Positions 6,517 through 28,232 of a stretch of 35,373 nucleotides of DNA are shown piece after piece; within the stretch, counting starts at the first letter, position 1, and every line of letters begins with the position of its first letter. The notes below the pieces were generated by a model, which saw nothing but the letters and a program-made list of their open reading frames with translations, was not told where the DNA came from and did not search any database. Location of the stretch: contig JAFVAT010000016.1 of NCBI GenBank assembly GCA_017480385.1, positions 1-35,373 of the forward strand. Direction: 5' to 3'. The translations under genes and the position numbers were made by a program. Source of the stretch: Alphaproteobacteria bacterium (GTDB lineage Bacteria; Pseudomonadota; Alphaproteobacteria; CAAGCB01; CAG-977).

Positions 6517-8886
6517 CTAAAACTTTTCATCAATAAAGTCGTCGTAGTTTTCGTTATCAAAAGCTCCCTCATCCTCTTCATCATCGTAATCTTCATCGTC
6601 GTCATCGTAATCTTCATCGTCGTCGTAGTCTTCGTCATCATCGTAGTCTTCGTCATCATCGTCAAAGTCGTCCGCCTCGTATTCTTCATAATCTTTCATG
6701 AATTCATCGGCGGCATCATCTTCCTCATCCTCTTCTTCGGCGATGTCGATCAATCCCTGCAATGCGCTAACGTCTGTATCTTCACGTTGGGCTACAACCC
6801 AATATGGAACAAAAGGCGATGGCGGAATATTGCACTTGGCTGTCATTTCTTTATCTAAGAACCAACGTGGGGCATCCGCCATAATCGGTCTGTTCATAAA
6901 CCCTTGCATTAGGACAATTTGCTGTGTTGACGGCAATGACAACATTTGAGACGCCCCGATCACAGCAGTTCCCTGCAAAGAACGCGACACGTTGGCCGAG
7001 AACGGCGTCGCCTGTTTTGACCAGCCTTCGGTTCTGGATTTGGAAGCGACTTCAACAGTCTTTGTCCCGATCATTTTTTCAAAACGTTGTGCCGTCTGTT
7101 CATTGTTCTGAGACAAAATAATTTTAGCCGCTGTTGTGGAAATAATTGTTTCCAAGTCGTCTTTTCCGTATTGTCCGGAAATTTGGCCTAAATCTTGTCC
7201 GATCAGCAAATAAGACACCTTTTGACCACGACCGACCGCAGGTCCGTCTTTCACAGCACCTAATTTAGGCATTTGCGGGAATTCGTCGAGCACGAACAAT
7301 GTTGGGAACGGTCCCGTCATCGAGCCGTCACCTTGTTTGAAATTGGGCGGATTCGCAATCAGGAAGTTACTCATCAATTCAACGAAGGTACCCGTAATAA
7401 TATTCAGCGCGCGGGCGTCAACTTGGTTCACTGACAAATAAATCGCAATGGATTTCATTTCTCCGGTGATAGGGTCCTTCATGCCGCGCAGGTCTTTGAA
7501 AATAAAGTCGCTCATTTTTGTCCTGGAGCGAACGGCCGAGTTCTTGAAAATACCGATACCGGTTAAAGCGGTGGATAAAATAGATCCGCGTTCTTTATCC
7601 GGCGTACCGGACAGCTGGTTCAGTTCCACAACGGCACGGTGAGCATAGCCATAGCGCTTACATTCTGCTACGGCCTGATCCAACATGTCGCGCATCGGAT
7701 CGGCCAACGCAGCCATTTGGTCGCCTTCCTCTGTTTTGCGTTTTATTTCCGCCGCCATTTGCATTTGCGCTTCGGTTAACCAGTCCAAAATCATGGCAAT
7801 GCACGGTTCCGCGCCAACCCATGATTCCGGCAGCATTTCCCACGTGCCGATCGGGACGTAGTTATTTAAGTCCAGTGTGCCGTTGCGCAGATGATCCAAG
7901 GCTTCCGCCGCATCTGCGTCGGTCATGTCCATATAATAGCCTTCCAGAACTTCACGGTCCTTGTCGTCCAGCTTCCCTTCATATAAGCGTCCGATAAAAT
8001 AGTCATTAGCGCGGGCATGTTCACATTTGCCAACAACAAAGTGGATAAAGCCGGTTAATGCGTTACGGCCTGTTTTAGCCCAGTGCGGGTCCGCGCCGCC
8101 CTTTGGTTCTTCCACCAAAACGTTAACCATAGAATCGACATACATGTCTCGTGCCGGTCCGAACGGCGGTAGGCAGGTGTTGGAAAGCATGTTCCAGCTG
8201 GGATAGTAAATGCCTTTTTCAGGTTCATCTTCAGCCCCCCAGTTGATAACAAAAACAGGACCGATTGTTTGTCGATAACCGCTGGTTTTAAAGCACAGTT
8301 CCGGTTTAGGGTCGTTCACAATAATACTGATGTTGTTTGATTCAAAAATTGTCGGCATAACGACCCCTACCGTTTTACCGGTACCAGGAGGCGCCAAGAC
8401 CAAAACTGACAATGTTTCGGGAAGACGCAGCAGCTTGCCGTGCCAACGGCCCAAGACCACAATAAATCCTCTGAACAGCCCCATTTTTTCAATGTCAGCT
8501 TTTGTCGCGATGCGACCGGAGCCGTGAATCGTTGATAACCATGAATGAGGGTTGGTCATAATCCCCGTCATTAAAATACCAAAAAAAGAAAAGAAAGGAA
8601 TTGCGGGCAACCAATAATAATAAGGCAGGTTTCCTCCCGTATCGAAAATTTTAACGGCCCATTTCCAATAGACCTTTATAAGGGCCATCGGCTGAACGGA
8701 CACCCTTTTGGTAAATTTCCAAATATACAGCATTGTGTTCTGACTGATTCCTCTGGGAATCAAATTTGTCATAGCAAAAGAGAGAATTGCAAGCAAATAT
8801 GAGACCATAAAAGCAATGAAGACTGTCCAGATAACCCATTGGATAGCAGCTTCTCTTTCTGCCCATTCTTCTCCGGTTCTTGCCAT
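6517..8886 (-). CDS. VirD4/TraG-type T4SS coupling ATPase with acidic C-terminal tail
   Basis: This 789-residue protein recruits substrates to the T4SS at the inner membrane. There are membrane segments at about 17-41 and 90-110. STIHGSGRIATKADIEKMGL (about 118-137) is the coupling-protein 'GSARWA' region. Walker A is APPGTGKT (165-172); Walker B is LFVLDEFPQMPKL near residue 535. The ATPase core with IGQDLGQISGQYG and a NNEQTAQRFEKMIGTKTVE stretch is typical of TraG/VirD4. The last 60 or so residues are a repeated Asp/Glu/Tyr stretch (DDDEDYDDDEDYDDD type) not usual in this family. A GGAG site precedes the ATG. The HNH-like gene follows after 33 bases. The N-terminal arrangement supports the conjugation/effector class rather than FtsK. 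Confidence 0.9.
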   Translation of the reverse strand: MARTGEEWAEREAAIQWVIWTVFIAFMVSYLLAILSFAMTNLIPRGISQNTMLYIWKFTKRVSVQPMALIKVYWKWAVKIFDTGGNLPYYYWLPAIPFFSFFGILMTGIMTNPHSWLSTIHGSGRIATKADIEKMGLFRGFIVVLGRWHGKLLRLPETLSVLVLAPPGTGKTVGVVMPTIFESNNISIIVNDPKPELCFKTSGYRQTIGPVFVINWGAEDEPEKGIYYPSWNMLSNTCLPPFGPARDMYVDSMVNVLVEEPKGGADPHWAKTGRNALTGFIHFVVGKCEHARANDYFIGRLYEGKLDDKDREVLEGYYMDMTDADAAEALDHLRNGTLDLNNYVPIGTWEMLPESWVGAEPCIAMILDWLTEAQMQMAAEIKRKTEEGDQMAALADPMRDMLDQAVAECKRYGYAHRAVVELNQLSGTPDKERGSILSTALTGIGIFKNSAVRSRTKMSDFIFKDLRGMKDPITGEMKSIAIYLSVNQVDARALNIITGTFVELMSNFLIANPPNFKQGDGSMTGPFPTLFVLDEFPQMPKLGAVKDGPAVGRGQKVSYLLIGQDLGQISGQYGKDDLETIISTTAAKIILSQNNEQTAQRFEKMIGTKTVEVASKSRTEGWSKQATPFSANVSRSLQGTAVIGASQMLSLPSTQQIVLMQGFMNRPIMADAPRWFLDKEMTAKCNIPPSPFVPYWVVAQREDTDVSALQGLIDIAEEEDEEDDAADEFMKDYEEYEADDFDDDDEDYDDDEDYDDDEDYDDDDEDYDDEEDEGAFDNENYDDFIDEKF

Positions 8887-9019: not shown

Positions 9020-10054
9020 TTATCCCAATACTCCGGAAACGCTGTGATATATTCCATCGTCCGGAGAAGTGACGGATGAAACGGTGTTCTGTAACGTTGC
9101 AATTTCGTCAGGACCGCCTTCTTCAAAACGGCAGACCGTGACATTCAGTCCGTTCCAGACTTCAAACATGTCTTCCGCATTAATGATCGTTCCTTGACGG
9201 ATTACGACCATTGTTTTAACTTCCATACCTCTTGCCGAACCTGTCAAAAGCGGCAGAAGCGAATCACGGGCATTTAAAACAACACGTACGGGAGAAATAC
9301 GATGGTTGCTTTCGGAGAACCACAACGGTTCTTCATCGTTGAACCGTTCTTCATCGGCCAACCAATCGCCGCTTTCAGAGTCAATCAGGCATAACAAAAT
9401 ATGGTCGGCAGCAATGGCTGCAAAATCGATCTTTTTGCCGGCTATTTTAGCATCTGAAATCAGCCTGTATCCGGCTGAACGTAAAATATCCATAACTGAG
9501 CCGCCCGAAACGGAAGAAGATGTTTGCCGCACCGGTGCTTCCTGACGCTGAGATCCTGTTGCCGGAGCCGGAGCCGGCGAAGCCGTTGCTGTCGGATTTT
9601 CCTCTTTTCCCGGTGCCTTGTCCACATGTTTGATTTTGCCGGACCCGGCTCTGATTGCGGGCGGGCGCGTCTGTTTATATGATTTTTTCTTTGTTACTTT
9701 TGGACGGGCCGTATTCTTTTCCTTTTTGCGTTCTTTGATTTTGCTGCGGATTAAGCGAATGGGGAATAACAGAATAATTTTGAACCACTTAATCCACGGA
9801 ACAGTACAAAGAGCAGCGGCTCCGGTCAGCCAAATAGGGATCATAGCAAAAAGGGCAAAGACAAATAGCCATTCACGAGCAGCCTGAATGACCCAACCGT
9901 TTTGCCATTCATTCCATATGTACAGCCAATGCTGCCTGGACATGGGGTTGAACCCCCACATGGCAATCATCAGCCTTTGGAACCAAAAGAAATATCCGAT
10001 TGTCCAAATAAATAAGATGAAAAAGATTCGTGAAATGGCAAAAATTATTTTCAC
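9020..10054 (-). CDS. T4SS-associated membrane protein, paralogue A
   Basis: This 344-residue protein has a GTG start preceded by GGGGGA. Two membrane segments (about 5-35 and 60-95) flank a SRQHWLYIWNEWQNGWVIQA loop. A Lys-rich linker (about 105-140), a Pro/Ala linker and a soluble C-terminal domain (about 185-330) follow. The soluble domain contains AGKKIDFAAIAADHILLCLI and VVIRQGTIINAEDMFEVWNG, a pattern loosely like restriction-endonuclease-fold (NERD-type) domains, but I see no complete catalytic motif. The adjacent upstream gene has the same architecture. Both precede the coupling ATPase in one operon, so a role with substrate recruitment is inferred. I do not recognise a named family. 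Confidence 0.55.
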   Translation of the reverse strand: MKIIFAISRIFFILFIWTIGYFFWFQRLMIAMWGFNPMSRQHWLYIWNEWQNGWVIQAAREWLFVFALFAMIPIWLTGAAALCTVPWIKWFKIILLFPIRLIRSKIKERKKEKNTARPKVTKKKSYKQTRPPAIRAGSGKIKHVDKAPGKEENPTATASPAPAPATGSQRQEAPVRQTSSSVSGGSVMDILRSAGYRLISDAKIAGKKIDFAAIAADHILLCLIDSESGDWLADEERFNDEEPLWFSESNHRISPVRVVLNARDSLLPLLTGSARGMEVKTMVVIRQGTIINAEDMFEVWNGLNVTVCRFEEGGPDEIATLQNTVSSVTSPDDGIYHSVSGVLG

Positions 10055-10075
10055 TAAAAAAATCCCCCGAAAAAC

Positions 10076-11146
10076 TTATTCGCCATTTTCTATTTCCATT
10101 AAATCTAAGATAGCGACAGCTATTGCATCGTTTAACTCCTGTGAAGAAGCCGGCTGAGACTTAATATATTCTATTAAGGCGTTCGTATCCGGCAAGGCCG
10201 ATGTTTTGCATGTCCCCATTCTTAAAACGGAAATATCCCACTTGTCTAAGAATGTCAACATCTTATCTGTGTTTGAAATGTCACCATGGTCTAAAATCAT
10301 ACAACAGTTTATACCCAATTTGGCATGCTGGGGTATTTTATCTTTGATGTATTTTTGCATCACGCTCCGTGCATTAACCATGTCTTGAAGCGGGGAAGAG
10401 ATTTTTTCTCCGGTTTCTGTTTTCCATACGGCGGGGGAAGCTTCGTCTTCTGTTTCCCAAACATTTCCTTGTTCGGGGCCTTCACATAACAAAAACAGAC
10501 TGTCTTGAGTAATGGCAAACAAATTGACAGGAAAAGAACGTATTTTCATTTGACGTAAAGTAAAAATCTTTTCTGCTTCCAACCCTTTTGCCAGGTTTTC
10601 CCATAAAGTAAAACGATCAAGTCCCGCATTCGCAGGAGTCGCCTGCCCTTGAACGGCATTTCCGGTATGGGAAGAATGTGACGCTGAAGATCCTTTGCCG
10701 CGCAGCTGATCAATATGATGCAGCTTTTGAGATGAAATTTTGATGACCTTTTCGGGCTCTTTTTTCGTTAATAAAGCTTCCTGTCGATTCGCCGGCCCCA
10801 GAGCTGCGGCTAAAGACTGCGCTTGAAGTTTAGCCTTTTTCTTATTATCCAAATATATTTTCGGGAAAAATAAAACTTTCTTCCAAGGAAAAACATGAAC
10901 AAGCCACCATGTGCCCAAATAGCCGGGAATAATAGCAAGGAGAGCGATAAAAAAGAAAACTTCTTTCGGTTTTCGCAGAACCCAGCCGTCTTTCCATTTT
11001 GTTATAATGTGCTGCCAGTGCCGTTCAGAGAGCAGATCAAAATGCCAGAAAAACGAGAAAAGTTCTCTGGCAAGGAAATAAAAAAGAACCGCTGCCACCG
11101 CAGCAGAAAAAAGAAGAGGAAGAAGATGTATTTTTCCTTTTTTCAT
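10076..11146 (-). CDS. T4SS-associated membrane protein, paralogue B
   Basis: This 356-residue protein is paralogous to its downstream neighbour. It has two membrane segments (about 7-32 and 63-85) with the loop LSERHWQHIITKWKDGWVLR between them, matching the SRQHW...W..GWV loop of paralogue A. A basic stretch (DNKKKAKLQA), a flexible linker and a soluble C-terminal domain (about 195-345) with RSFPVNLFAITQDSLFLLCE and NCCMILDHGDISNTDKMLTF follow. A GGAAT site precedes ATG 11146. It is the first gene after a strong minus-strand promoter (11203-11174). A duplicated pair flanking a VirD4-type ATPase could form a hetero-oligomeric adaptor; that is inference. No named family is recognised. Confidence 0.55.
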   Translation of the reverse strand: MKKGKIHLLPLLFSAAVAAVLFYFLARELFSFFWHFDLLSERHWQHIITKWKDGWVLRKPKEVFFFIALLAIIPGYLGTWWLVHVFPWKKVLFFPKIYLDNKKKAKLQAQSLAAALGPANRQEALLTKKEPEKVIKISSQKLHHIDQLRGKGSSASHSSHTGNAVQGQATPANAGLDRFTLWENLAKGLEAEKIFTLRQMKIRSFPVNLFAITQDSLFLLCEGPEQGNVWETEDEASPAVWKTETGEKISSPLQDMVNARSVMQKYIKDKIPQHAKLGINCCMILDHGDISNTDKMLTFLDKWDISVLRMGTCKTSALPDTNALIEYIKSQPASSQELNDAIAVAILDLMEIENGE

Positions 11147-13570: not shown

Positions 13571-15940
13571 ATGAAAAAGTATGGGCACAGAGTTCAATTA
13601 TCTCTTTTATGGCTGCTTTTGGCGGTATGCATTTTTTCGGTCTTGCCTCGGTCTGCTTCGGCAGCAATGTTGGAAACCATAACGTATGCCGGTCAAGGGG
13701 AAGAAGAAGACATTAATTGCGAGTATGATGTTGGCAAGTACCGGGCAAAGCAATGGTGGAAAAAGCCTTTAGATGCGGTTTTGGATACTTCTGTCCAAGT
13801 CGGAGACTCGGTCTTTGACAGTATAGGTTCCAGTGTTGTGGGGCTGGTCTGTGTGGGCGGTGGTTTGTGGCTCGCCGTTTTTTCGATAAAAGTTCTGGGA
13901 GGTATGGTAGAATCCGATCCGCTGGAAAATCTGACAAAAGTCGGCGGGTTAATGCTTCGAATAGGGATTGCTGCGGCCTTGCTGAAAAACAGATCGTTTT
14001 TCTTTGGGTATTTCCTTTCGCCGATCATTGAGGCGGGCGCCGGATTTGTGGACAGCGGCAATGCTGTGAGTGTGGCTGGCGGTCTTAGCGGAGCGGCTAG
14101 CACGCTAAAGGGAATGGCTATTGATATTCATGATACGATAGTGCCGATACAAGCCGGCGGTGATTATTTGCAGTGTTTGTCTCAAATCCATGAGCTTAGT
14201 GTGCCTATAATAGGTAAATATTTATTGACTTTCCAGGATCCCGGGGCTTGGTCTGCCGGTTGCGCCTTTTTGGTTGTCGGCTGGCTTTTGATAATAGCTT
14301 TTCCTATTTTGCTCATGGATGCGGGGTTCCGTTTGGGAATTACGGCGGCTTTATGCCCTCTGTTTATCGCGGCTTGGGTGTTTCAGTCAACCCGCGATTA
14401 TACAAAAAAAGGCGTGAACGCAGTTTTAAATATTGCATTTGTTTTTATGATGATAAAACTTTCATCAAAATTTGCGGTTGAATTAGTGAAAGGAGCTACG
14501 GGACTTGATCAGTTGAATAATGGACAACCGGATGATCCGACGCATTTTGTTTGTACTTTCCGTTCTTATCACTTCGGTGGGTCTGATGATTCGTGCAGTC
14601 CGGCTGATAAGGAACACGGGGGTATAACGCTTATATTTATCTGTGCTGTTTGTACTGCATATGGTATTTATTTGATGCGTGAAGCGGCTAATACATTGGC
14701 GAACTATTTCTCGGACACCTCGTTTAGCAATGATACGGCGTTCCAGGCGGCTAAAGGCGGTATGACAGCTCCGATCAACTTCGCGAATACGGGCATCAAT
14801 ATGGCTCATGACACGAAAAGCGCTTTAGGCAAAACAATGGTCGGAAAAGCGGTTGGTAAGGCGGCCAATAAAGTAGGGGCTATTGCTGCCAAGCCATTTC
14901 AGGCTGCTGGCCGTGCGATTGCCCGTCCCTTTAAAAAAGCGGGCAATAGAATAAAAGGCCGTGCTCAACAGTTGCAGAATAAAGCGAAAAGCGATGTTAA
15001 GCAATTCAGCAATAATGTAAAACAAAGATTTAAAGATCGTTTTAGTAGCAATAATAGTAATTCGGCTTCTTCTCAGCCTCCTACGCCGAATGCTAAAAGA
15101 GATCCGAAAACCAATGATTGGGTTTCCACGCATACGAACAAAGATGGCAGCTCTGTGGAGACCCGTATGAATGATCAGGGGCAACGGACCAGCGTGACTA
15201 AACGAAATGCCGCAGGACAAGTAACTTCACGTGATCAATTCGATTCAAAAGGCAATCAGTCCGGTCATTATGAAGCAACGTATGATTCCAAGGGGCAGAA
15301 AACGAGTGAATATCAGTTTGATAAAAGCGGGTCTACTCAAAGGACGTTTAAAGATGGTCAGATGACGCGTGAGAAAGTCAAAGACCATGCAAAAGGAACG
15401 GAGACTGATACAAGCTATAATAAAGACGGTAAAAAGATACGCCAGTCTATTTCCGCCGGCGGAAAAAAGACAACCATGGACTTTGATGAAAAAGAACAGG
15501 TGTCGCGTAAAGAAACGGTAGATCGTGATGGAACCAAAACAACGGATACCTTTACGCGTGGGAATAATGGTAAGCTGGTCGAAAGTACTACTGTAAAAGA
15601 AAATCCGGATGGTTCGTCTGAGCGGACGGATTGGCAGCATGATGCTGATGGCAAGAGAGCGGCCGGGTTGAAAACGGTTACCAACTCAAAAGGAGAGGAA
15701 GGGGCAACGCTGATGGTTGATGGAAATGGCAACAGACCTAAAGGAATGCCTGCCTCTGCGGTATACAATCCAAAAGATCAAACTTGGGCGACCTCTTATA
15801 CGGATAAGAAAACGGGAGAAAATACCAGGACTGTAATGGATCGCAATGGTCAGAGACAAAGTGTTACAAAGACTAGTAAAGATGGCAGAATAACTTCTCA
15901 GACACAATTTAAAGACGGAAATCCGATAATAACTCCGTAA
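13571..15940 (+). CDS. TrbL/VirB6-like T4SS membrane protein with RHS-like C-terminal tail
   Basis: This 789-residue protein has a Sec signal peptide (MKKYGHRVQLSLLWLLLAVC..., predicted cut after ASA31). A polytopic core (about 80-400) includes GSSVVGLVCVGGGLWLAVFS and DPLENLTKVGGLMLRIGIAA, as in its two downstream paralogues, followed by MDAGFRLGITAALCPLFIAA. This is the TrbL/VirB6 inner-membrane channel fold. A Lys/Ala-rich region (about 420-500) leads to a hydrophilic tail (about 515-789). The tail is built from repeats such as DGSSVETRMNDQGQRTSVTK, resembling YD/RHS repeats with the 'DxxGxxT' rhythm. Such tails are not typical of VirB6, although Rickettsiales VirB6-like proteins are also extended. 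Unlike the other two it lacks the CWxC motif. Confidence 0.75.
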   Translation: MKKYGHRVQLSLLWLLLAVCIFSVLPRSASAAMLETITYAGQGEEEDINCEYDVGKYRAKQWWKKPLDAVLDTSVQVGDSVFDSIGSSVVGLVCVGGGLWLAVFSIKVLGGMVESDPLENLTKVGGLMLRIGIAAALLKNRSFFFGYFLSPIIEAGAGFVDSGNAVSVAGGLSGAASTLKGMAIDIHDTIVPIQAGGDYLQCLSQIHELSVPIIGKYLLTFQDPGAWSAGCAFLVVGWLLIIAFPILLMDAGFRLGITAALCPLFIAAWVFQSTRDYTKKGVNAVLNIAFVFMMIKLSSKFAVELVKGATGLDQLNNGQPDDPTHFVCTFRSYHFGGSDDSCSPADKEHGGITLIFICAVCTAYGIYLMREAANTLANYFSDTSFSNDTAFQAAKGGMTAPINFANTGINMAHDTKSALGKTMVGKAVGKAANKVGAIAAKPFQAAGRAIARPFKKAGNRIKGRAQQLQNKAKSDVKQFSNNVKQRFKDRFSSNNSNSASSQPPTPNAKRDPKTNDWVSTHTNKDGSSVETRMNDQGQRTSVTKRNAAGQVTSRDQFDSKGNQSGHYEATYDSKGQKTSEYQFDKSGSTQRTFKDGQMTREKVKDHAKGTETDTSYNKDGKKIRQSISAGGKKTTMDFDEKEQVSRKETVDRDGTKTTDTFTRGNNGKLVESTTVKENPDGSSERTDWQHDADGKRAAGLKTVTNSKGEEGATLMVDGNGNRPKGMPASAVYNPKDQTWATSYTDKKTGENTRTVMDRNGQRQSVTKTSKDGRITSQTQFKDGNPIITP

Positions 15941-16029
15941 TGTGATGAGTTAAAACTGTATTCTTTATCTGAACTGATTAAGAAAAGGGCAAAAGATATA
16001 TAGAAAGCAAAGAAACGCTAAAAATCATA

Positions 16030-16056
16030 AAGAACGTTTTTTATTGAAACGTTCTT
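16030..16056 (+). promoter_or_regulatory. Perfect hairpin between the first and second VirB6-like genes
   Basis: AAGAACGTTT (16030-16039) and AAACGTTCTT (16047-16056) form a 10-bp perfect stem with a seven-base loop, 56 bases before the next ATG. There is no T-tract on the plus strand, so an mRNA processing/stability element or attenuator is as likely as a terminator. Confidence 0.45.
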
Positions 16057-16111
16057 CGGGAAAGATGAAGAAAGTTGAAAAAGATATAACAAATAACTTG
16101 GGAATACGAAG

Positions 16112-18313
16112 ATGGTAAAAGCATACATCTCATTTTTAAAACGATTTAAGATCACACGAATTGTGTGTATGCTTTTGCTCGTGTTTTCTGTCGCGGCTTT
16201 GACCGGGTGCCATAATGAAGATGTGGAAATAGATGGTGATGGTTCTGAAGCTGCAGCGGCGGAACAGTCCTTAAAGGGGTGCTGGACATGTTCTATGTTC
16301 CAGACAGCTTTTGAGGCGGCCAATAATATGACTCGGACGATTGTTCCCACTGTAGCCAGAAGTGCTGTGTCTTTGGTGGCTGTCGGATATGGATTGTGGT
16401 TGGCAATTTTTATTTTAAAGCAGATCAGTTCTATGCAGGAACCTGATGCAGGGGAGTTTTGGAAAGCTCTGGCTGTGCAATCATTTTGGGCGGCGATGGG
16501 GGCGGCTTTGCTGCGGGATTTGGCCGGCGGTGGATTAGGATCTGCTTTAACTTCTTTTGCGGAACCGGTTTTTACAGGGTTTGTTGATGCCGGGTTAACG
16601 GTTGTATCGTCTTCCGGTACGAATATTCCTTGCGGACCGACGGGAAATGCTGAAACCAGTATGCTTTGTTTGGTTCGGGCACTGCAGGAAAAATTGAATT
16701 TTGGCACAGGAATTTCTTTGTTGGCGATAATGTCCCCTACCGGTTTTATTGCGATTTTTGTTGCATTGATCGTTTTTATCGTTTCAACGATTATGATGGT
16801 TTGGTTCCCGATTTTACTTTTGGACTGCGTTTTCAGATATGGAATGGCTGTCAGTATGCTGCCTTTGGCGGTTACGGCATACGTTTTTAAACCGACACGG
16901 AATTTTACCGGAAAAGTTGCTACAGCGTTTATGGAAATAGGCTTTGCCGTAATGGGAATGTGTGCTTTCTCTGCATGCTCTGTTCAAATTATGGGGGCAT
17001 ACATTGATCGTTTCCTTCCATTCGTTCAAAATCCTCTGTTCTTTTTAACGAATCTGGAAGCTTTAGAACAGGTTTTATGCGGTCCGGGCATTACGGGACT
17101 GTTGTTCCTCTCCTTTTTCTTGATTTTATTTGCTGAGGTTATTTTTGATTTCATGAACGCCCTTTCGGGAGGAGTTGGAGGAATAGGCGGTGGAGTCCGA
17201 GGAGCAGTAGCCGGCCTTAAGGCCACAAAGAACGGTGCTAAGAAAATTGCGAATTTTGGCATTAATAGAGTCCAACGCATGAAAGACCGTCGCGCTGCTA
17301 GAGATATGGCCAAACATCAGGCGGCATATAATGCTGATGTCGCAAAGCATAATGGCGGTGGTAATACGAATAGCGGTACTCTACAGAATGCCAGTGGCAA
17401 TGGTTCCGGCAACAGCAATAACAGCAATGCTTCCGGCGGCAATTCCGGCAACAGCAATAACAGCAATGCTTCCGGCGGTAATTCCGGAAACAACACCAAT
17501 AACAGCAATAATTCCGGCAACAGCAATAACAGCAATGCTTCCGGCGGCAATTCCGGCAACAGCAATAACAGCAATGCTTCCGGCGGCAATTCCGGCAACA
17601 GCAATAACAGCAATAATTCCGGCGGTAATTCCGGCAACAGCAATAACAGCAATAATTCCGGCGGTAATTCCGGCAACAGCAATAACAGTAATAGTTCCGA
17701 CGGTAATTCCGGTGGTGCATCCAACTCTGCCGAAGCGGCGGCAGGGCGCTTACAGGATCGTGGTTATTTAAATCAGGACGCTAATGGTTCCGGTGATAAT
17801 TCCGGCAACAGCAATAACAGTAACAATTCCGGCGGCAACAATGGTGGCAATAACTCTTCCGGGGCTGACTCGAACAACGGAAATGATTCATCAAATAATG
17901 CTGGAAGCAACAACAGTAATGGAAACAGTAATCCTCCCAGTTATCATGAATTAAGCGATGAAGGCAAGAAGTATATGCGTGCGGCAGAACGCTTGCAGGA
18001 TCGTGGTTACTTGGCTCAGGGCGCTGATGGCAAAATGCATGCAACTCAGGCTTATGATCAGTTGATGAGACGCCCGACAGGACCGTTTAAGGGCATTAAA
18101 CGGTTGGCCATGGGATTGGAAAACTTGAAACAAGATTACTCTGAATCCGCGATGGAGCAAAGCGCTGCCCGCCATAGACATGGAATTGATGATGGAGGTA
18201 ATCCCGAAAATGTTTTGAGTTCACGTGATGCTGCTTACGACGCAGACAATCCCAATAAGAATGTTTTGAAGGAAGGGGATTTTAATCCTGATGTCGTTTT
18301 GCCGGAGAAGTAA
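16112..18313 (+). CDS. TrbL/VirB6-like T4SS lipoprotein with Asn/Ser/Gly repeat tail
   Basis: This 733-residue protein has a lipoprotein signal ending in a clear lipobox, VAALTGC, with C33 as the lipidation site. A C57-W-T-C60 motif (GCWTCSMFQTAFEAANNMTR) is followed by a polytopic TrbL/VirB6 core to about residue 350: AVSLVAVGYGLWLAIFILKQ and LLDCVFRYGMAVSMLPLAVT. The linker after about 400 is NSGNSNNSNASGG-type repeats (about 430-610). The segment RLQDRGYL occurs twice, near 548 and 630, suggesting a duplicated short module. The C-terminus is soluble. A lipidated VirB6-like protein is unusual and would be tethered at the periplasmic face or outer membrane. The CWxC pair is shared with the 18547 paralogue. 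Confidence 0.72.
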   Translation: MVKAYISFLKRFKITRIVCMLLLVFSVAALTGCHNEDVEIDGDGSEAAAAEQSLKGCWTCSMFQTAFEAANNMTRTIVPTVARSAVSLVAVGYGLWLAIFILKQISSMQEPDAGEFWKALAVQSFWAAMGAALLRDLAGGGLGSALTSFAEPVFTGFVDAGLTVVSSSGTNIPCGPTGNAETSMLCLVRALQEKLNFGTGISLLAIMSPTGFIAIFVALIVFIVSTIMMVWFPILLLDCVFRYGMAVSMLPLAVTAYVFKPTRNFTGKVATAFMEIGFAVMGMCAFSACSVQIMGAYIDRFLPFVQNPLFFLTNLEALEQVLCGPGITGLLFLSFFLILFAEVIFDFMNALSGGVGGIGGGVRGAVAGLKATKNGAKKIANFGINRVQRMKDRRAARDMAKHQAAYNADVAKHNGGGNTNSGTLQNASGNGSGNSNNSNASGGNSGNSNNSNASGGNSGNNTNNSNNSGNSNNSNASGGNSGNSNNSNASGGNSGNSNNSNNSGGNSGNSNNSNNSGGNSGNSNNSNSSDGNSGGASNSAEAAAGRLQDRGYLNQDANGSGDNSGNSNNSNNSGGNNGGNNSSGADSNNGNDSSNNAGSNNSNGNSNPPSYHELSDEGKKYMRAAERLQDRGYLAQGADGKMHATQAYDQLMRRPTGPFKGIKRLAMGLENLKQDYSESAMEQSAARHRHGIDDGGNPENVLSSRDAAYDADNPNKNVLKEGDFNPDVVLPEK
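17398..17850. repeat. 39-bp tandem repeats encoding NSGNSNNSNASGG units
   Basis: About eight to ten copies of a 39-bp unit (AATTCCGGCAACAGCAATAA...) encode 13-residue Asn/Ser/Gly repeats within the second VirB6-like gene; some units are shortened in whole codons. The near-identity of copies indicates slippage or recombination. A Cys/Tyr-rich frame on the opposite strand is a by-product. Confidence 0.85.
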
Positions 18314-18331
18314 TGGGCGGAGGTAAATGAA

Positions 18332-18550
18332 ATGTCGAGGCTGCAGCAATATCTTCTGTTCGGTGTCATCGTTTTTTTGGTCCAATTTACATCACTCGGA
18401 CATTTGTTGCAGTCGGCTTCCTTTTTAAACGTTATGTTGGGAATAATCGGGTGTTTATTGGTGATCGCAGTATTGATAACTGTACGGACAACAAAAAAAA
18501 GAAAAAGAGGATATAAGGATCCTGTAAATAAAAGAGGAGCTGACGCATGA
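18332..18550 (+). CDS. Small two-span membrane protein between VirB6-like genes
   Basis: This 72-residue protein starts MSRLQQYLLFGVIVFLVQFT with GGAGG about 11 bases before the ATG. There are two hydrophobic segments (about 6-22 and 33-52, MLGIIGCLLVIAVLITVRT) and a very basic C-terminus (KKRKRGYKDPVNKRGADA). The size and two-span topology recall small T4SS subunits such as VirB3 or VirB2-like pilins, but there is no signal peptide and no sequence match I can claim. The stop overlaps the start of the next VirB6-like gene (ATGA at 18547-18550), so translation is coupled. Confidence 0.65.
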   Translation: MSRLQQYLLFGVIVFLVQFTSLGHLLQSASFLNVMLGIIGCLLVIAVLITVRTTKKRKRGYKDPVNKRGADA

Positions 18551-20109
18551 AGAAGCTATTTTCAAAACAACTATATATACGACTGTTGCTTGTTGTCGGC
18601 CTTTTCTTTGTTTCCTCTTCATCCGTTTTTGCTTCAGCTCAGCAAGACGCAATAGATAAATATTGTGATACATGGGATGTTAATATTGAGGATTATTCGG
18701 GGCAGGAACATTGTTGGTCCTGTGAAATATTCGTTTTGTTGTTTGATTCGGCGAATATGGTTGCGGGCTTGACGAACAGTGCTTTAGGTGATGGTGCTAA
18801 AGGTATTGTTGCGGTAGGGGGAGGATTATGGTTTGCATTTTATACCTTGATGTTCTTCAGTAATGTCGGCGGTCTTTCGGATCCAATGGAATATTTAACG
18901 AAGATCGGTTCTATTATGCTTCGCATTGGCATTGCCGGCGTATTTTTATCCGGCGGGGCTTCTATGGCCTTTGATTATATTATCAGCCCTGTTTTAACCA
19001 GTGGAGCAAAATTGGCAAATATAGCTTTAAATGCCAGCGGTCACCTGCCTGTTACATTGCCTAATGATGTGGCAAGTCCGGCAACGGATATGTACAATAA
19101 AATGAAAGAGTGGAAAGAAAAGGACGCGGATTCTATCGCGGCCAAATTTGCGGCTGCGGCAACGGCGCCGATTTTTGGAAACGCTCCCTCCGCGGCAATT
19201 TCCGGACCTATGGGGGACGGGGTCAGAAGCGCATTGAAACAAATGATTGCCGCAATGGCTTCCGGCATGGCTCAAGCACAGGCAATTGCTCAGGGATTGC
19301 GGTGTGGCGCGGCTTTTTATTGGCACGTGGATCTGTATTTTATTGAATGGTTTTTTCCTAATCCGTTAATGGCTTTCGTTGGAATGTGGCTGGGGTGTGT
19401 GTTTTGGGGTATCTCCGTAATGTTCTGTTTCGCAATGCTGGACGTTATTTTCCGTATCGGATTATTGGTCAGTATGCTGCCGATTTTCATTGCGGCATGG
19501 GTGTTCCCGATAACGTCTCAATTCGCTCAATCGGCATGGAAAATGTTTTTAAACACTGTTATGGTGTTTTTTGTGACGGGACTGACGGCATCATTCATTG
19601 TTGTTTTGGTGGAAAATGCGTGGGATATTAATCCCGGCGAAACGTCATCTTTTATGGCAGAGATGAAGGCGAGTCATTATACTGATGCGTGGGAACAGTT
19701 ATTTGAGCAGGGTTTTGTAGCGGGACTGGGAACACTATTGTTGGTAAGTGCTGTCGCATGGTGGGGGTGGCTTATGGCTCCTAAATCAGATGAAACAGCC
19801 AAAAAATTTGTTGGCGGGTCGTTTTCTTCCAGTGTTGCGATAAAAGCGATTAAGAAGTTGATTAATTTTATTATAGACGCTGTTATGTTTGTTTTAACGA
19901 TTGTTACCATGGGAATGGGCGCCTGTATGTATTTCTTCAAGGTTGCCAGAACAATGGCGGATGCCTTGGATAAAGTTCAAAAGCTTAGGGAAATAGAGCA
20001 AAAGATTAAAGAAACGCGTAAAAAGTTGCAAAAGATGCGGAAAATACAGGATAAAATGAAAAAAGTGCAAAAGGGAGTACATGATGCTACTGATAAGATT
20101 GGCGGGTAA
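18547..20109 (+). CDS. TrbL/VirB6-like T4SS membrane protein
   Basis: This 520-residue protein has a Sec signal peptide (hydrophobic 11-28, cut after ASA31). A C56-W-S-C59 motif (HCWSCEIFVLLFDSANMVAG) precedes GIVAVGGGLWFAFYTLMFFS and DPMEYLTKIGSIMLRIGIAG. The later polytopic part has FCFAMLDVIFRIGLLVSMLP and FIAAWVFPITSQFAQSAWKM. The C-terminus (about 475-520) is a Lys-rich coiled coil (LDKVQKLREIEQKIKETRKK). This is the most compact and probably the archetypal member of the trio; the others add long tails. A terminator follows at 20134-20164, closing the plus-strand VirB6 operon. The CWxC cysteines could form a periplasmic disulfide or metal site. Confidence 0.75.
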   Translation: MKKLFSKQLYIRLLLVVGLFFVSSSSVFASAQQDAIDKYCDTWDVNIEDYSGQEHCWSCEIFVLLFDSANMVAGLTNSALGDGAKGIVAVGGGLWFAFYTLMFFSNVGGLSDPMEYLTKIGSIMLRIGIAGVFLSGGASMAFDYIISPVLTSGAKLANIALNASGHLPVTLPNDVASPATDMYNKMKEWKEKDADSIAAKFAAAATAPIFGNAPSAAISGPMGDGVRSALKQMIAAMASGMAQAQAIAQGLRCGAAFYWHVDLYFIEWFFPNPLMAFVGMWLGCVFWGISVMFCFAMLDVIFRIGLLVSMLPIFIAAWVFPITSQFAQSAWKMFLNTVMVFFVTGLTASFIVVLVENAWDINPGETSSFMAEMKASHYTDAWEQLFEQGFVAGLGTLLLVSAVAWWGWLMAPKSDETAKKFVGGSFSSSVAIKAIKKLINFIIDAVMFVLTIVTMGMGACMYFFKVARTMADALDKVQKLREIEQKIKETRKKLQKMRKIQDKMKKVQKGVHDATDKIGG

Positions 20110-20133: not shown

Positions 20134-20164
20134 AAAAAACTCCGTCTTAGGGCGGAGTTTTTTT
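20134..20164 (+). terminator. Rho-independent terminator of the VirB6 operon
   Basis: AAAAAACTCCG (20134-20144) pairs with CGGAGTTTTTT (20153-20163) around a short loop, and the run of seven T's continues to 20164. It lies 25 bases after the third VirB6-like gene and is symmetrical enough to work in both directions. Confidence 0.85.
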
Positions 20165-20275: not shown

Positions 20276-21271
20276 ATGGAAGAGATTATCTTTCCGAATC
20301 AGATTCGTATGTATCGTCGCGTGCGCGGTCGCTCTATGCAGGAATTGGCTGATTTTTTAGGGGTCAGTCTTTCTGCTGTCAGTAAAATCGAAAAGGGCTA
20401 CAGGCGCATAGATCAGGAACAGTTGGTTCGTATTGCTGAATTTTTGGATTGTCCTTTGCAGGAAATTTTTGTGAACGAAGCCAGCTCTCAGCCCGATGTT
20501 GTTCAGGCTTGGCGTCGGGAACAGGAACGCCGTAACCGTGTGAATGAGCGCTGTGGTTTAAAAATGCTGGGGGCAGGGCTGCGTTATATTCGCGGTCAGA
20601 AAAATCTGACTTTGGCAGATGTGGCCGACGGGTCCGATTTGACCCTTTCTGTGTATCATCGGATTGAAATGGGACAGCGCGAGGTTTCCGAAGATGAAAT
20701 TTCCAGAATAGCCCGTGCTTTGGGATATACAAATGATGAGCTGCAGAAGCAGATTTATGATTTGGATAAGGCCGGCGCGCTGGAAGAATTTATTCAGAGA
20801 AACGATGCGCGTTATCGTACGGTTGCCGGTGTCAAAACGGGGTATCCGGAATTGCCAGTGTCCAAAGCTGCCGGATTGAAGCAAGAGCGGCAGGACGTTG
20901 TTTTGCAGGTCTATGGTCAGGCGGGTGAGAATGGTTCTGTTATTATTGACCGTCAGACGCCGTTAGGAACGGTTAATTGTTCTGCCGGAGCGGTAAATCC
21001 GATGTCGTCTTATGCTGTATCGCTTTGTACGCGTCGTTTGGGAAATTTATTGCCGGCACGCTCCATTCTTATAGTTGATCCGACAAAAATGGTTGGATTG
21101 GGAGATATTGCCGTTATGTATATGAATGATACAGAAGCCCGTTTAATCAGCGTCCGTGAAGACATTGACGGCAAGCTGTTCGGTGTTTTGTGGAATCCGG
21201 AAGAAAAAATCGAAATTTCCGAAGATAAGGCGTCGGCCCTGCATCGTGTCGTTCAAATTCAACTGCCGTAA
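20276..21271 (+). CDS. Double helix-turn-helix regulator with S24-like C-terminal domain
   Basis: This 331-residue protein has two XRE-type HTH domains: residues about 8-62 (GRSMQELADFLGVSLSAVSK, then IEKGYRRIDQEQLVRIAEFL) and about 100-155 (KNLTLADVADGSDLTLSVYH, then RIEMGQREVSEDEISRIARA). The C-terminal part (about 200-330) has ARSILIVDPTKMVGLGDIAV and LFGVLWNPEEKIEIS, resembling the S24/LexA sensor fold, but no Ser-Met dyad is visible, so no self-cleavage is expected. It sits between the VirB6 operon and the 1510-residue protein, so it probably regulates the T4SS locus. The ATG at 20276 follows AAAGGA. Two tandem HTH units in one chain are uncommon and suggest recognition of long or asymmetric operators. 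Confidence 0.75.
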   Translation: MEEIIFPNQIRMYRRVRGRSMQELADFLGVSLSAVSKIEKGYRRIDQEQLVRIAEFLDCPLQEIFVNEASSQPDVVQAWRREQERRNRVNERCGLKMLGAGLRYIRGQKNLTLADVADGSDLTLSVYHRIEMGQREVSEDEISRIARALGYTNDELQKQIYDLDKAGALEEFIQRNDARYRTVAGVKTGYPELPVSKAAGLKQERQDVVLQVYGQAGENGSVIIDRQTPLGTVNCSAGAVNPMSSYAVSLCTRRLGNLLPARSILIVDPTKMVGLGDIAVMYMNDTEARLISVREDIDGKLFGVLWNPEEKIEISEDKASALHRVVQIQLP

Positions 21272-21394: not shown

Positions 21395-24300
21395 ATGAGC
21401 CCGCCAAAAAAGGACACTAAAAAGTGGAAACCGAAATTTCCCGGTGCAGCCGCCGACGGGGAAGAGGATCCGTATGTTACAGCGCAGCGCTTTGTTAATG
21501 TTTATCGTCAATTGCATGTTTTGCGCGAGGATTTAGTTTCCCGATATAATGAAATGCTGCTGGATATTGATGCGGACGCGCGTTCGACTTTAGTGGATAT
21601 TCCGGGCGGCAGAGACGTACGGGATTATCTGACGTATTTGGAACAGCAGAAATACGGTGACGATTATGTTTCGGAAGAAGACGATGACGAGTTTGTTTCT
21701 CGTGAAGAAAAGGCAAAAGCGAAAGCAATTGCCGATGCTTTGTCTTCTGCTCAGGAAAAAATGAATCAAAACCAAATGGCGGTTATGCAGCAGGCTCAGG
21801 AAGAAGCGCGGCGTAATATGGAAATGCTGGCAAAAACTTTGTCCGAGGCCAAACAGGATCCTTCCCGAAAAGCGGAAGCGGTTCAGCTGTCCCAAGCCTT
21901 GCAGTCGGCACAGCAGGAATATTCCACTTATTCGCATCAAATAGGTGATGAGACCGCCGGAGAAATAGAAAGCGTTCAATCGAAATTAAGAGCGCAGTAT
22001 GCAGCTCAGGCTATGCAGTCGCAGCAGCAGCTGATGCCAATGCCGATGAATTACGGTATACAAAGCGGCTTGGAAAATCTGTCGCAGGCGGGATCGCAGG
22101 GGTTGGATGCTTTAGTGAATGCCTTGACGGAGGCGCAGGTAAAATCGGCCGAGCTGCAGGCAAAAGCGCAATCAGAAACAATGGCGAAGATTTTTTCTCA
22201 AAGTCAGGAAATGACAGCGCGCGCTATGGCCGAAGCCTTTTCCAAATCGCAGCAGAATGCGGCTGAGGTTCAAGGAAATTTAATTGCAAAGGCGATTGCA
22301 GATTCTCAAAGAAACGCTAATGAAACTTTAGCGGCTTTATTTTCCTCCATTCAAAAAGGGGGGACGCTGCCGCAGGCGCAAACGCCGCAGATTGTCATTG
22401 AAAATAATAATTCGGCGGCTTCTGTTGCTCAAAGTGCTTCCTATGCCGAACAAATCAAGATGATGGTTCAGGCGCAGGTTGAAGCGCAAAAAGAAATTCT
22501 GGAAATGCAGAAACAAGCCATGGCGTTTAATGTTGGCAATGGCGGCGGCAGCGGCGGTGGAGGCGGCGGCGGAATGTCCGCTGCGGAACAGGCAAAGATG
22601 ATTGCCGATGTCGTTGCGCAAACACAAAGCGCTGTTTTGACGGAAACAATGGGTCAAATGATGCATCGGCAGGAAGAATCCCAACGTTTCCAGGCAACAT
22701 TAATGGCCGAGGCTTTTTCTAAACAAACGCAGGAAATAGCGTTGGCCTTATCCAATGCTCAAAAAGCGGTTCGAAATGATACGTTGGCGACGCAGGCTCA
22801 GGCTGTTGCTCAGGCCATGATCAGGGCTCAGTCGGCCACACAGTCGGAAACGATTACGGCGCAGGCCAAAGCTATTGCAACGGCAATGTCGGAGTCTCAA
22901 AATGCGCTGCAGGCCGAGGCATTGGCGACACAGGCGCGTGTTGTGGCCGAGGCTGTTGCAGAGTCTCAATCTAGTGTTCAGCGCGATGTTTTGGCAGAGC
23001 AGGCGCGTGTTGTGGCCGAGGCTATGTCAGCTTCTCAAGCAAGTGTTCAAGCGGAAGCATTGGCGACACAAGCACGTGTCGTTGCGGCGGCGGTCGCCGA
23101 GTCTCAGGGCGCAGTGCAGAAAGAAGTTTTGGCAGAGCAGGCGCGCGTTATTGCGGAAACGCAGCAGTCAATTCAGCGGGACGCTTTAGCGGAACAAGCG
23201 CGCGTCATAGCGGAAACACAGACGTCGATCCAGCGGGACGCTTTAGCAGAGCAGGCGCGCGTCATAGCGGAAACACAGACGTCGATCCAGCGCGACGCTT
23301 TGGCCGAACAGGCTCGTGTTATTGCAGAGACGCAGCAGTCAATCCAGCGGGACGCTTTGGCAGAGCAAGCGCGTGTTGTCGCGGAAGCCATGTCAGAGTC
23401 TCAGGCAAGTATGCAGACAGACGCTTTGGCCGAACAGGCGCGTGTTGTGGCTGAGGCTATGGCACAGCAGCAGAATGCTTCTTTGTCGGAAACGGTGGAA
23501 TTGATCAGCCAAAAGCAAATGGATCAAACCTCGGCTTTGGCTTCAGCTTTGGCCAAGCAGCAAGCCAAAACACAGGAAGTGATTCACACCTGGTCGCAGG
23601 ACGGCATGCCTTCGGGCGGCATTCAGCCCGTCCAGCCGGCGCATGATTATTACGATACGCCATATACTTCCGGTTATGAGGAAGAAAGCGTTGAAACTGT
23701 TCAGCAGCAGCTTGAACCGGAAGAAGAACAGTCGAAAAAGAAGACGCGTGAGCTGCCAAAAATGGATTTGTCCGATTGGAATGCCAATCTTGACGAAGCG
23801 ATCTCTTTGTCTCAGCAGGCGGCAGCTGAAGCCGGGTACGATTTAGATGATAATTGGGGATACGGTTATGCCGATGCTTCCAGTGAAGCAATTGATTATT
23901 CCAATCTTGATGAAACGGAAGAGTATAATTACCAAGATGCGGAAGGTTATGAAGGCGATCAGGCGTATTACGATTATCCTCAGGAGGATCAGGGCCTTTA
24001 CGGATACGTTGCTGCAGGTAATTACGGGGCATATTATTATACAGATGAAGACGGCAATCCATATTATCTGGATACAAACGGGAATCCGTATTATGTCGAT
24101 GAAAATGGCCAGGCTTACTATGTTGATGAAAACGGTCAGGCCGTTTATTTTGACCCGAATGCGATCAGCGAAGATCAGACTCAGGCGGCAGCTTCGTATT
24201 ATACAGACGAGAACGGGAACCCATATTATTTAGATGCAAATGGGAATCCGTATTATGTCGATGAAAACGGCCAAGCTTACTACGTAGATGAAAACGGTCA

Positions 24301-26996: not shown

Positions 26997-28232
26997 ATGT
27001 TTTTTCAATACATCAAAAAATATGTTTTATCCGCAGTGATACTGGGCAGCGGGTGTCTTTTGATTTCCTGTGGCAGTGATATCCGTGCAGGGCGGCCAAT
27101 GGTTCAAATGGTGCGTCCGACATCTTTGCCGACAGAACCGAAAACGACTCGATCTGCGGAAATGGTCAGTCTGGAATCGCCCATGCGTTGTACCGTGCAG
27201 GAAACGCAGCAGAATATTATGACTGTTATTCCCTTTAAACAGGAAGCTTTTAAATTGGAGCGTGCGCAGAAAAGCGATCCTTTGCCGCGTTATGAGGTCA
27301 CGGGATTTTCTTTTGACGGTCAATCGGCGGAACGTGTTTTTTATAAACTTTTAAGTGAAGCCAAAATTAAAGTTGTCGGCGAGGGCGGTCCTTTTCCCGA
27401 ATTGGCGGCGGAAAATATTACGGGCGAACTGTCCGAAGTTATGGATATGATCGCTAATGCCGCTGATGTTTATTATCGTTACAACGATCAGCAAAAGGTT
27501 TTGATTGTTAGCCGCGAGGTCAGTTGGAATTTGTACGTTCCCGATAAACGAGAGGTCATGATTGCGGTTTTGGATTCTTTGCGCGGATCCGGTATGCATG
27601 ATTTGATCGTGAACTGGGAAGAAAGCGTTATTTCTTTTATCGGGGATAAAAAAATCGAGGATAAAGTCAAAAAGCTGATCGAGCTGTTTGATACGGAACC
27701 GAAACTGATCGTCTTTAATGCACAGGTTTTGCGTGTTAAGCCGTACGGCGCGGCAAAAGAAATCGTTTGGCAGGAATTGGTTGATATTTTTGGCGCGGAT
27801 CGGATTAAATTCATGCTGAAAGGCGTTATGGGACGGGCTTTGGTTACGGACTATGACATTAATCCGAAAAGCCTGCGGAATTTCTTAAACGCTCGCGGTT
27901 CCGTTACGCAGGTGTCTGAAGGCATGTTCATTGCGGCGAATAAGTGGCGGGCACGTTTTGATGTCGGGCGATGCGGCTATATGTCCATGCCGGAAGCTCA
28001 ACTATCAATTATGGCTCAAACGGAGTTGTATGGCGAACGGCGCATGAACACGGATATTACATTAGATTCCGATCAGGGGGAAGTTACGGCCTTTTCTGCG
28101 AAGAGCCGCTTGGGTGACAATATTGTTTTGATCGGGATTCCGTCTGCTTCTTTCAGTGATTCTCTGAACGGGTATGAGACGGTTGTTATTTTAACGCCCA
28201 GTGTGATCAAGTTGGTTAAAGAATTCAATTAA
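26997..28232 (+). CDS. Secretin-like lipoprotein (PilN/BfpB-type N-domains)
   Basis: This 411-residue protein has a lipoprotein signal with lipobox LISC, C25 lipidated. After a linker, about residues 98-165 look like a secretin STN/N0 domain (GFSFDGQSAERVFYKLLSEA, ending YYRYNDQQKVLIVSR). About 170-250 resemble N1-type domains (KKIEDKVKKLIELFDTEPKL, IVFNAQVLRVKP). The C-terminus (LGDNIVLIGIPSASFSDSLN, then GYETVVILTPSVIKLVK) resembles the end of secretin barrels. The length is short for a full secretin (about 500-650), so the pore region may be reduced. Outer-membrane secretin-like lipoproteins occur in type IVb pili and IncI thin pili. Here it would be the outer-membrane partner of the T4SS (inference). 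Confidence 0.65.
   Translation: MFFQYIKKYVLSAVILGSGCLLISCGSDIRAGRPMVQMVRPTSLPTEPKTTRSAEMVSLESPMRCTVQETQQNIMTVIPFKQEAFKLERAQKSDPLPRYEVTGFSFDGQSAERVFYKLLSEAKIKVVGEGGPFPELAAENITGELSEVMDMIANAADVYYRYNDQQKVLIVSREVSWNLYVPDKREVMIAVLDSLRGSGMHDLIVNWEESVISFIGDKKIEDKVKKLIELFDTEPKLIVFNAQVLRVKPYGAAKEIVWQELVDIFGADRIKFMLKGVMGRALVTDYDINPKSLRNFLNARGSVTQVSEGMFIAANKWRARFDVGRCGYMSMPEAQLSIMAQTELYGERRMNTDITLDSDQGEVTAFSAKSRLGDNIVLIGIPSASFSDSLNGYETVVILTPSVIKLVKEFN

What the first reader, a model, noticed from the sequence alone, without database searches (positions are those of the whole stretch)
13571..20109. Three tandem VirB6/TrbL-like proteins with signal peptides and different tails
Three paralogues share the 'VAVGGGLW' and 'LTKIGxIMLRIGIA' core, but one has an RHS-like repeat tail, one is a predicted lipoprotein with Asn/Ser/Gly repeats and one ends in a coiled coil. 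Multiple VirB6-like proteins with long extensions are known from Rickettsiales T4SSs; signal peptides and a lipobox are not standard for VirB6. This suggests a hetero-oligomeric channel with tails exposed outside the inner membrane.
Basis: partly seen in the sequence, partly recalled or inferred. Interest (0 to 1): 0.75.

Follow-up and report, generated by a model that had tools for sequence, protein, structure and literature searches.

The report
Tandem VirB6 trio, one copy lipidated
Three neighbouring genes in a gut bacterium encode related core parts (VirB6) of a type IV secretion machine, one of which is predicted to be lipid-anchored; this resembles what is known from the Rickettsiales, but here it appears in gut Alphaproteobacteria, with one lipid-anchored copy per gene cluster.

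Summary
The three genes are real, tandem and paralogous. All three are VirB6 family: P1 passes Pfam TrbL/VirB6; models of P2 and P3 match R388 VirB6 (TrwI) first in the PDB. P1 and P3 have Sec-type signal peptides; P2 has a lipobox (LTGC, Cys33). They belong to a chromosomal, scattered P-type T4SS without a detected relaxase, conserved through gut Alphaproteobacteria. The claim that signal peptides and lipoboxes are unusual for VirB6 is wrong for extended VirB6s: Anaplasma, Ehrlichia and Wolbachia copies are published as SP-bearing or lipoproteins. New here: outside Rickettsiales, arrays of 2-5 copies hold exactly one member of one lipoprotein lineage (74 of 74 distinct loci that have it, none with two; lipobox Cys invariant in 49 of 49 aligned), compatible with a single origin, while non-lipidated copies multiplied separately at least in part. 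The long tails are not conserved: the Asn/Ser/Gly tail of P2 was seen only in the window's species, and RHS similarity of the P1 tail is below threshold. Which side of the inner membrane the tails face is unresolved. Best reading: a mixed VirB6 stalk base with one kind of lipid-anchored subunit. New variant of a known kind.

The parts
13571..15940 (+). P1: extended VirB6 paralogue, 789 aa, Sec-type signal peptide, VirB6 core about residues 90-390, repetitive basic tail
   Evidence: PF04610 39.6 bits, cut-off 25.9; orthologues in family f1
13571..13666 (+). P1 predicted signal peptide (about residues 1-32, ends SASA/A)
   Evidence: hydropathy; by eye, no SignalP
14981..15937 (+). P1 tail, residues 471-789, internally repetitive, not conserved among orthologues
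   Evidence: self-repeat score against shuffles; RHS below threshold; alignment
16112..18313 (+). P2: lipoprotein VirB6 paralogue, 733 aa, VirB6 core about residues 58-350
   Evidence: AF2 model pLDDT 80.5; PDB top 8 hits all R388 VirB6/TrwI, best E=6.2e-5; profile to TrwI sequence E=1.4e-4
16208..16210 (+). P2 lipobox cysteine codon (Cys33, LTGC)
   Evidence: invariant in 49 of 49 aligned orthologues; strict lipobox in 66 of 72 P2-clade proteins against 23 of 212 other VirB6-like copies
17291..18091 (+). P2 Asn/Ser/Gly-rich repeat tail (residues 394-660), absent from the other P2 orthologues aligned
   Evidence: composition; orthologue lengths 479-509 aa in family f1, 565-codon frame in G007
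18547..20109 (+). P3: VirB6 paralogue, 520 aa, signal peptide, extra hydrophobic helix 431-466, basic helical end
   Evidence: AF2 pLDDT 77.0; PDB top 8 hits all R388 VirB6, best E=1.3e-3, prob 1.00
20134..20163 (+). intrinsic-terminator-like hairpin after P3 (13 pairs, T run)
   Evidence: consensus scan
20276..21271 (+). double-HTH XRE-type regulator linked to VirB6 arrays
   Evidence: PF01381; used as anchor: 158 relatives, best 80 kept
6517..8886 (-). VirD4 coupling protein of the same T4SS
   Evidence: PF02534 192.8 bits
12328..13365 (-). divergently transcribed neighbour co-conserved with the trio, function unknown
   Evidence: orthologues at the same place in f1 loci and in G032
9020..10054 (-). 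membrane-anchored protein, paralogue of 10076-11146, co-conserved with VirD4
10076..11146 (-). paralogue of 9020-10054, co-conserved

Best explanation
P1, P2 and P3 are three VirB6 subunits of one chromosomal P-type T4SS. Signal peptides put each N-terminus into the periplasm; the conserved seven-helix core then builds the VirB6 stalk base on the inner membrane, as in R388. P2 is the one copy whose N-terminus is processed as a lipoprotein, so that its first core helix (the counterpart of the helix that recruits the pilin VirB2 in R388) sits beside a lipid anchor. The three are used together as a mixed ring, not as interchangeable spares. The tails are fast-changing additions whose side of the membrane is not settled. 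With no relaxase found, the machine probably exports proteins. Shown: family, fold, signals and conservation. Inferred: lipidation itself, mixed ring, role of the lipid, cargo.
For: Family and fold. Rest of a T4SS in the same genome: VirD4, VirB4, VirB10, two VirB8, VirB9, VirB11, VirB2. Lipobox: invariant Cys33 in 49 of 49; strict pattern in 66 of 72 P2-clade proteins, 23 of 212 other copies, 7 of 25 weakly P2-like; LspA gene present. Exactly one P2-clade member in each of 74 distinct loci that have one, never two. Lipoprotein copies lie on one side of a branch (25 of 25; 24 of 25 in the wider tree, where one clade of all 25 is not rejected, p-AU 0.544). Same-strand tandem order; on the + strand a terminator-like hairpin after P3 but none in the two gaps between the genes. 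No PF03432 or PF03389 relaxase. Literature: VirB6 is a pentamer in R388 with VirB2 recruitment proposed at helix 1 (PMC9259494, passages); disruption of VirB6 paralogues attenuates Anaplasma growth (title of PMC7648143).
Against: No interaction or expression data; a mixed ring is not shown. Two relaxase families only were searched, so DNA transfer is not excluded. VirB5 was not found over cut-off. The profile led by P3 did not reach TrwI by sequence, nor did that of P1. Lipidation is a pattern call, not a measurement. 23 of 212 non-P2 copies also match the lipobox pattern; a few of these, and some weakly P2-like ones, look like real lipoproteins (for example in L111, L103, L105), so one lipoprotein per array may not hold everywhere.
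Confidence: 0.6

Rival explanations
1. The copies form separate homo-oligomeric VirB6 rings (alternative machines or conditional variants), each with its own tail, sharing the rest of the T4SS.
For: Only one copy each of VirB4, VirB9 and VirB10 was found, so variants would have to share them; tails differ strongly; non-lipidated copies duplicate freely, as in G007 with two P1-like copies.
Against: Exactly one P2-clade copy is kept in each of 74 distinct loci, next to the others on one strand; spare or alternative rings would be expected to be lost or multiplied in some lineages.
Confidence: 0.2
2. P2 is not part of the ring but a lipid-anchored assembly or pilotin-like factor derived from VirB6, and only P1 and P3 type copies form the ring.
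For: P2-type copies usually lack the long extensions (about 407-509 aa in most loci) and have Tyr or Phe where P1 and P3 have Trp (Trp 10 of 10 in P1, 12 of 12 in P3, 4 of 49 in P2).
Against: P2 keeps the whole seven-helix core and is the copy that matches TrwI best.
Confidence: 0.15
3. Conjugation machine of an integrated element rather than an effector exporter.
For: P-type T4SS parts are also those of conjugation; only two relaxase families were searched.
Against: Parts are scattered on three contigs, kept in the same neighbourhood across species, with no plasmid match for P1 or P2.
Confidence: 0.1

Closest known systems
Extended VirB6 sets of Rickettsiales (rvhB6 / VirB6-1 to -4 of Anaplasmataceae)
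   Same: Several tandem VirB6 paralogues with long variable extensions; predicted SPs on some copies and lipobox on others (PMC7648143, passages); scattered chromosomal T4SS, duplicated VirB8 (PMC2653234, passages).
   Different: Here VirB4 and VirB9 were found once, the VirB6 array is not beside virB3-virB4 but in a locus with virD4 and an XRE regulator, and VirB10 is a 2348 aa protein with repeats. Orthology of P2 with VirB6-3 was not tested: no Rickettsiales sequence was obtained.
VirB6/TrwI of the R388 conjugation system
   Same: Predicted core fold; best PDB match for P2 and P3.
   Different: 342 residues in the PDB entry, forming a pentamer of one protein; here three copies with signal peptides, lipobox and tails.
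VirB6 of Agrobacterium tumefaciens
   Same: TrbL/VirB6 domain (PF04610).
   Different: [quoted passage not shown] a single gene (recalled).

Membership tests
VirB6/TrbL (PF04610) | Profile match over the curated cut-off | tested here: inconclusive
   Met by P1: 39.6 bits, cut-off 25.9. Not met by P2 and P3: 13.5 and 16 bits.
VirB6/TrbL (PF04610) | VirB6 fold | tested here: met
   P2 and P3 models: eight best PDB hits are all TrwI chains, prob 1.00. P1 was not modelled.
VirB6/TrbL (PF04610) | Encoded in a genome with a T4SS | tested here: met
Extended VirB6 of Rickettsiales type | Several VirB6 copies with hydrophilic extensions, SP or lipobox | tested here: met
   literature
rvh T4SS (Rickettsiales vir homologue) | Duplicated VirB8 | tested here: met
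   two adjacent PF04335 proteins; hallmark list from PMC11077975 (passage)
rvh T4SS (Rickettsiales vir homologue) | Duplicated VirB4 | tested here: not met
   one PF03135 match in the genome
rvh T4SS (Rickettsiales vir homologue) | Duplicated VirB9 | tested here: not met
   one PF03524 match
rvh T4SS (Rickettsiales vir homologue) | No VirB5 analogue | tested here: inconclusive
   no PF07996 match over cut-off, but two small helical proteins with signal peptides follow virB4
Lipoprotein (P2) | Lipobox at the end of a signal peptide | tested here: met
   pattern only
Lipoprotein (P2) | Lipid attached to the Cys | not testable with these tools
   needs labelling or mass spectrometry
RHS repeat (P1 tail) | PF05593 over cut-off | tested here: not met
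   E=0.97, 10.4 bits, cut-off 22

The most novel reading that the evidence does not exclude
The VirB6 ring of this T4SS is built asymmetrically: each machine carries one obligate class of lipid-anchored VirB6 subunit, of single ancient origin, beside a lineage-specific set of non-lipidated subunits. The lipid sits at the pilin-recruiting helix and breaks the five-fold symmetry of the stalk base, marking a position for pilin-lipid extraction or for channel opening.
Probability: 0.2. Interest if true: 0.75.

Novelty: new variant of a known kind. Interest (0 to 1): 0.45.

Why it matters
A 2025 review says that how the domains of extended VirB6s contribute to T4SS structure or function is not yet known (PMC12857230, passage). 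Small, mostly tail-less lipoprotein VirB6 copies, kept one per array in gut Alphaproteobacteria, would make the role of VirB6 lipidation and of mixed VirB6 rings testable away from obligate intracellular Rickettsiales. The searches that named gut or rumen Alphaproteobacteria, RF32 or CAG-239, or a VirB6 lipoprotein with paralogues or hetero-oligomers listed no paper that I could recognise, by title and start of abstract, as being on this system; the library holds open-licence PMC papers only.

Tried and rejected
Rickettsiales sequences: I wanted to test orthology of P2 with VirB6-3. A PF01617 search of 385 class genomes was meant to flag Anaplasmataceae (specificity recalled), but it matched widely (128 of 385) and did not identify them. 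The phylum sample gave 2 of 398 genomes with P2-profile matches, one being the window's own. The orthology question stays open.

RHS filing of the P1 tail: rejected, below threshold. Essential-Trp idea: P1 and P3 have Trp where P2 mostly has Tyr, but in the HMMER alignment the Trp of TrwI lines up two residues further on, so I do not claim that P2 lacks the functional Trp. A looser regex for this site over all copies left most undecided (178 of 232 'other' unmatched) and was not used.

Independent duplication of the non-lipidated copies: supported for P3 (one clade with the last copies of four-copy loci rejected, p-AU 0.0017), not shown for P1 (p-AU 0.116).

My ORF caller chose antisense frames in part of L037 and in L042/L063; G007 was read again and has four VirB6 frames, the third with a lipobox LSGC. 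It also counted two non-VirB6 ORFs (L037, L038) as a fourth copy; the one of L038 was in the first tree and removed for the second. For the second tree I also dropped six loci (L096, L103, L047, L055, L074, L086) to limit its size. Trees are 'quick' trees with SH-aLRT support only.
Full report
What is there. The window is contig C9 of a 2.03 Mb assembly, 40 contigs, 95% complete, whose relatives are recorded as Alphaproteobacteria. Three + strand genes, P1 (13571-15940), P2 (16112-18313) and P3 (18547-20109), follow each other. A strong terminator-like hairpin stands at 20134-20163, after P3; none is listed on the + strand in the two gaps between the genes. P1 reaches the Pfam TrbL/VirB6 family over cut-off; P2 and P3 only weakly (13.5 and 16 bits). 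AlphaFold models of the P2 core (pLDDT 80.5, pTM 0.73) and of P3 (77.0, 0.65) give as best eight PDB matches only TrwI/VirB6 chains of R388, best E 6.2e-5 and 1.3e-3. A P2 profile also finds the TrwI sequence as best PDB hit, E 1.4e-4; profiles led by P3 and P1 do not. So all three are VirB6 proteins; the call is firmest for P1 and P2.

Core and signals. The VxVGxGLW stretch is in all three; the LTKxG stretch is in P1 and P3 only. Each starts with a basic region and a hydrophobic stretch. P2 ends it in LTGC. In 49 P2-type proteins this Cys, Cys57, Cys174 and Cys186 are invariant. A strict lipobox pattern is met by 66 of 72 distinct P2-clade proteins whose start lies inside the locus, 7 of 25 weakly P2-like ones and 23 of 212 other VirB6-like copies. 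Of the six P2 misses, five have the Cys at the site with a residue outside the pattern before it, and one has a start that looks wrongly called. P3 has invariant Cys40, Cys56, Cys59 and Cys253 in 12 of 12. An LspA signal peptidase gene is present.

System. The same genome holds VirD4 in the window, VirB4, VirB2 and a VirB3-like ORF on C6, and two VirB8, VirB9 with a SPOR domain, VirB10 and VirB11 on C28. VirB3 is assigned by size, place and a match to an ORF beside another VirB4, not by Pfam. No relaxase of PF03432 or PF03389 was found; VirB4 and VirB9 were found once each.

Distribution. Of 11 same-family relatives searched (G001-G011), eight show the trio, one (G007) four copies, one (G006) ends with its contig after P2, one (G010) has no match. 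The neighbouring XRE regulator served as anchor in a genome scan: 158 relatives, 80 kept, most of them titled as Alphaproteobacteria or proteobacteria, many from rumen, colon, caecum or faeces by their names; one is Azospirillum sp. CAG:239. Of 112 loci with VirB6-like copies, 82 have exactly one P2-clade member and 30 none by this classifier, some of these cut by contig ends, some from distant families, some by frames that my ORF caller missed. Without repeats, 74 distinct loci have one and none has two; copies seen per locus: two in 3, three in 15, four in 52, five in 4 (two of the fours are threes, see Tried and rejected). The P2 profile matches 35 of 385 genomes of the class (some matches are non-lipoprotein copies) and 2 of 398 of a phylum sample. 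No plasmid record matched P1 or P2.

Evolution. In a tree of 91 rows all 25 lipoprotein rows lie on one side of a branch (SH-aLRT 96). In a wider tree of 87 rows 24 of 25 do (98), L048_7100 standing with its own genome's copies; one clade of all 25 is not rejected (p-AU 0.544, likelihood slightly higher). P3 of the window's family is not one clade with the last copies of four-copy loci (p-AU 0.0017); for P1 and the first copies this is not rejected (0.116). So the data fit one old lipoprotein lineage, and at least part of the other copies arose separately. The root is not known.

Tails. P1 orthologues of the family run from 510 to 828 aa; a repeat tail with similar letters is seen in the window and in L041, two of ten aligned. 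The other P2 orthologues of the family are 479-509 aa or a 565-codon frame (G007), so the Asn/Ser/Gly stretch is an addition in the window's species. The tails are therefore not the conserved function.

Which side the tails face. The stretch after the last core helix is net positive in 10 of 10 P1 and 47 of 49 P2, and the loop before that helix net negative in 10 of 10 and 45 of 49: by the positive-inside rule the tails are cytoplasmic, as described for A. tumefaciens (passage). But in R388 only helices 1 and 2 enter the membrane and the rest of VirB6 stands in the periplasm (PMC9259494, passages; PMC12857230, passages), and trypsin data suggest surface-exposed C-termini of Anaplasma VirB6-3 and -4 (PMC7648143, passages). 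P3 has a further hydrophobic helix before a basic end. I leave this open.

What is known. Several VirB6 copies with extensions, SPs and lipoboxes are described for Rickettsiales (passages of PMC7648143, PMC4197220 and PMC2653234). The window's system shares this but lacks the rvh hallmarks of VirB4 and VirB9 duplication (hallmarks: PMC11077975, passage). It is filed as an extended-VirB6, P-type T4SS, not as rvh.

Mechanism. Most likely the three form one mixed VirB6 stalk base, with P2 the lipid-anchored subunit at the pilin-recruiting helix. The ring, the lipid and the cargo are inferred. Interest is moderate: the surprise named in the finding (SP and lipobox) is known; the one-lipoprotein rule in gut Alphaproteobacteria is, as far as my searches show, not described.

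Noticed in passing
L054:3970-11016 (G000:C28): VirB10-like protein of 2348 aa: TrbI domain near the C-terminus, 23 Bflower_2 stretches and RHS_repeat matches before it.
   Followed up: partly
L053:16347-18606 (G000:C6): A TcpQ lipoprotein and a secretin lipoprotein lie beside virB2-virB3-virB4, divergently transcribed; a type IVb pilus or an outer-membrane part of the T4SS.
   Followed up: no
window 21395-25927: 1510 aa protein with repeated YYVDENGQAYYVDENG-like units and Glu/Pro repeats after the regulator; related proteins stand next to the trio in relatives.
   Followed up: no
window 20276-21271: Double-HTH regulator 93-94% identical across the genus and 59% in G032, far more conserved than the VirB6 copies beside it.
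   Followed up: partly
window 9020-11146: Two membrane-anchored paralogues between VirD4 and the trio; distant relatives include three copies in L048.
   Followed up: no
window 26997-28232: Lipoprotein-like ORF of 411 aa without Pfam match; related protein in G378 at 27% identity beside a VirB6 array.
   Followed up: no
L042 (G007:C57:24086-27383): Two P1-like VirB6 copies with near-identical upstream stretches: a recent duplication of a non-lipidated copy.
   Followed up: partly
L135 (JAISVX010000001.1) and L098 (CANQZO010000049.1): Records titled Lactobacillaceae and Candidatus Gastranaerophilales carry this alphaproteobacterial regulator locus; probably misnamed assemblies.
   Followed up: no
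window P2 residue 257: P2-type copies have mostly Tyr or Phe (43 of 49) where P1 (10 of 10) and P3 (12 of 12) have Trp.
   Followed up: partly
L174:2406-10791: A genome of family f119 has VirB3-VirB4 with a single VirB6 of 740 aa close by, and an XRE-like gene between.
   Followed up: no
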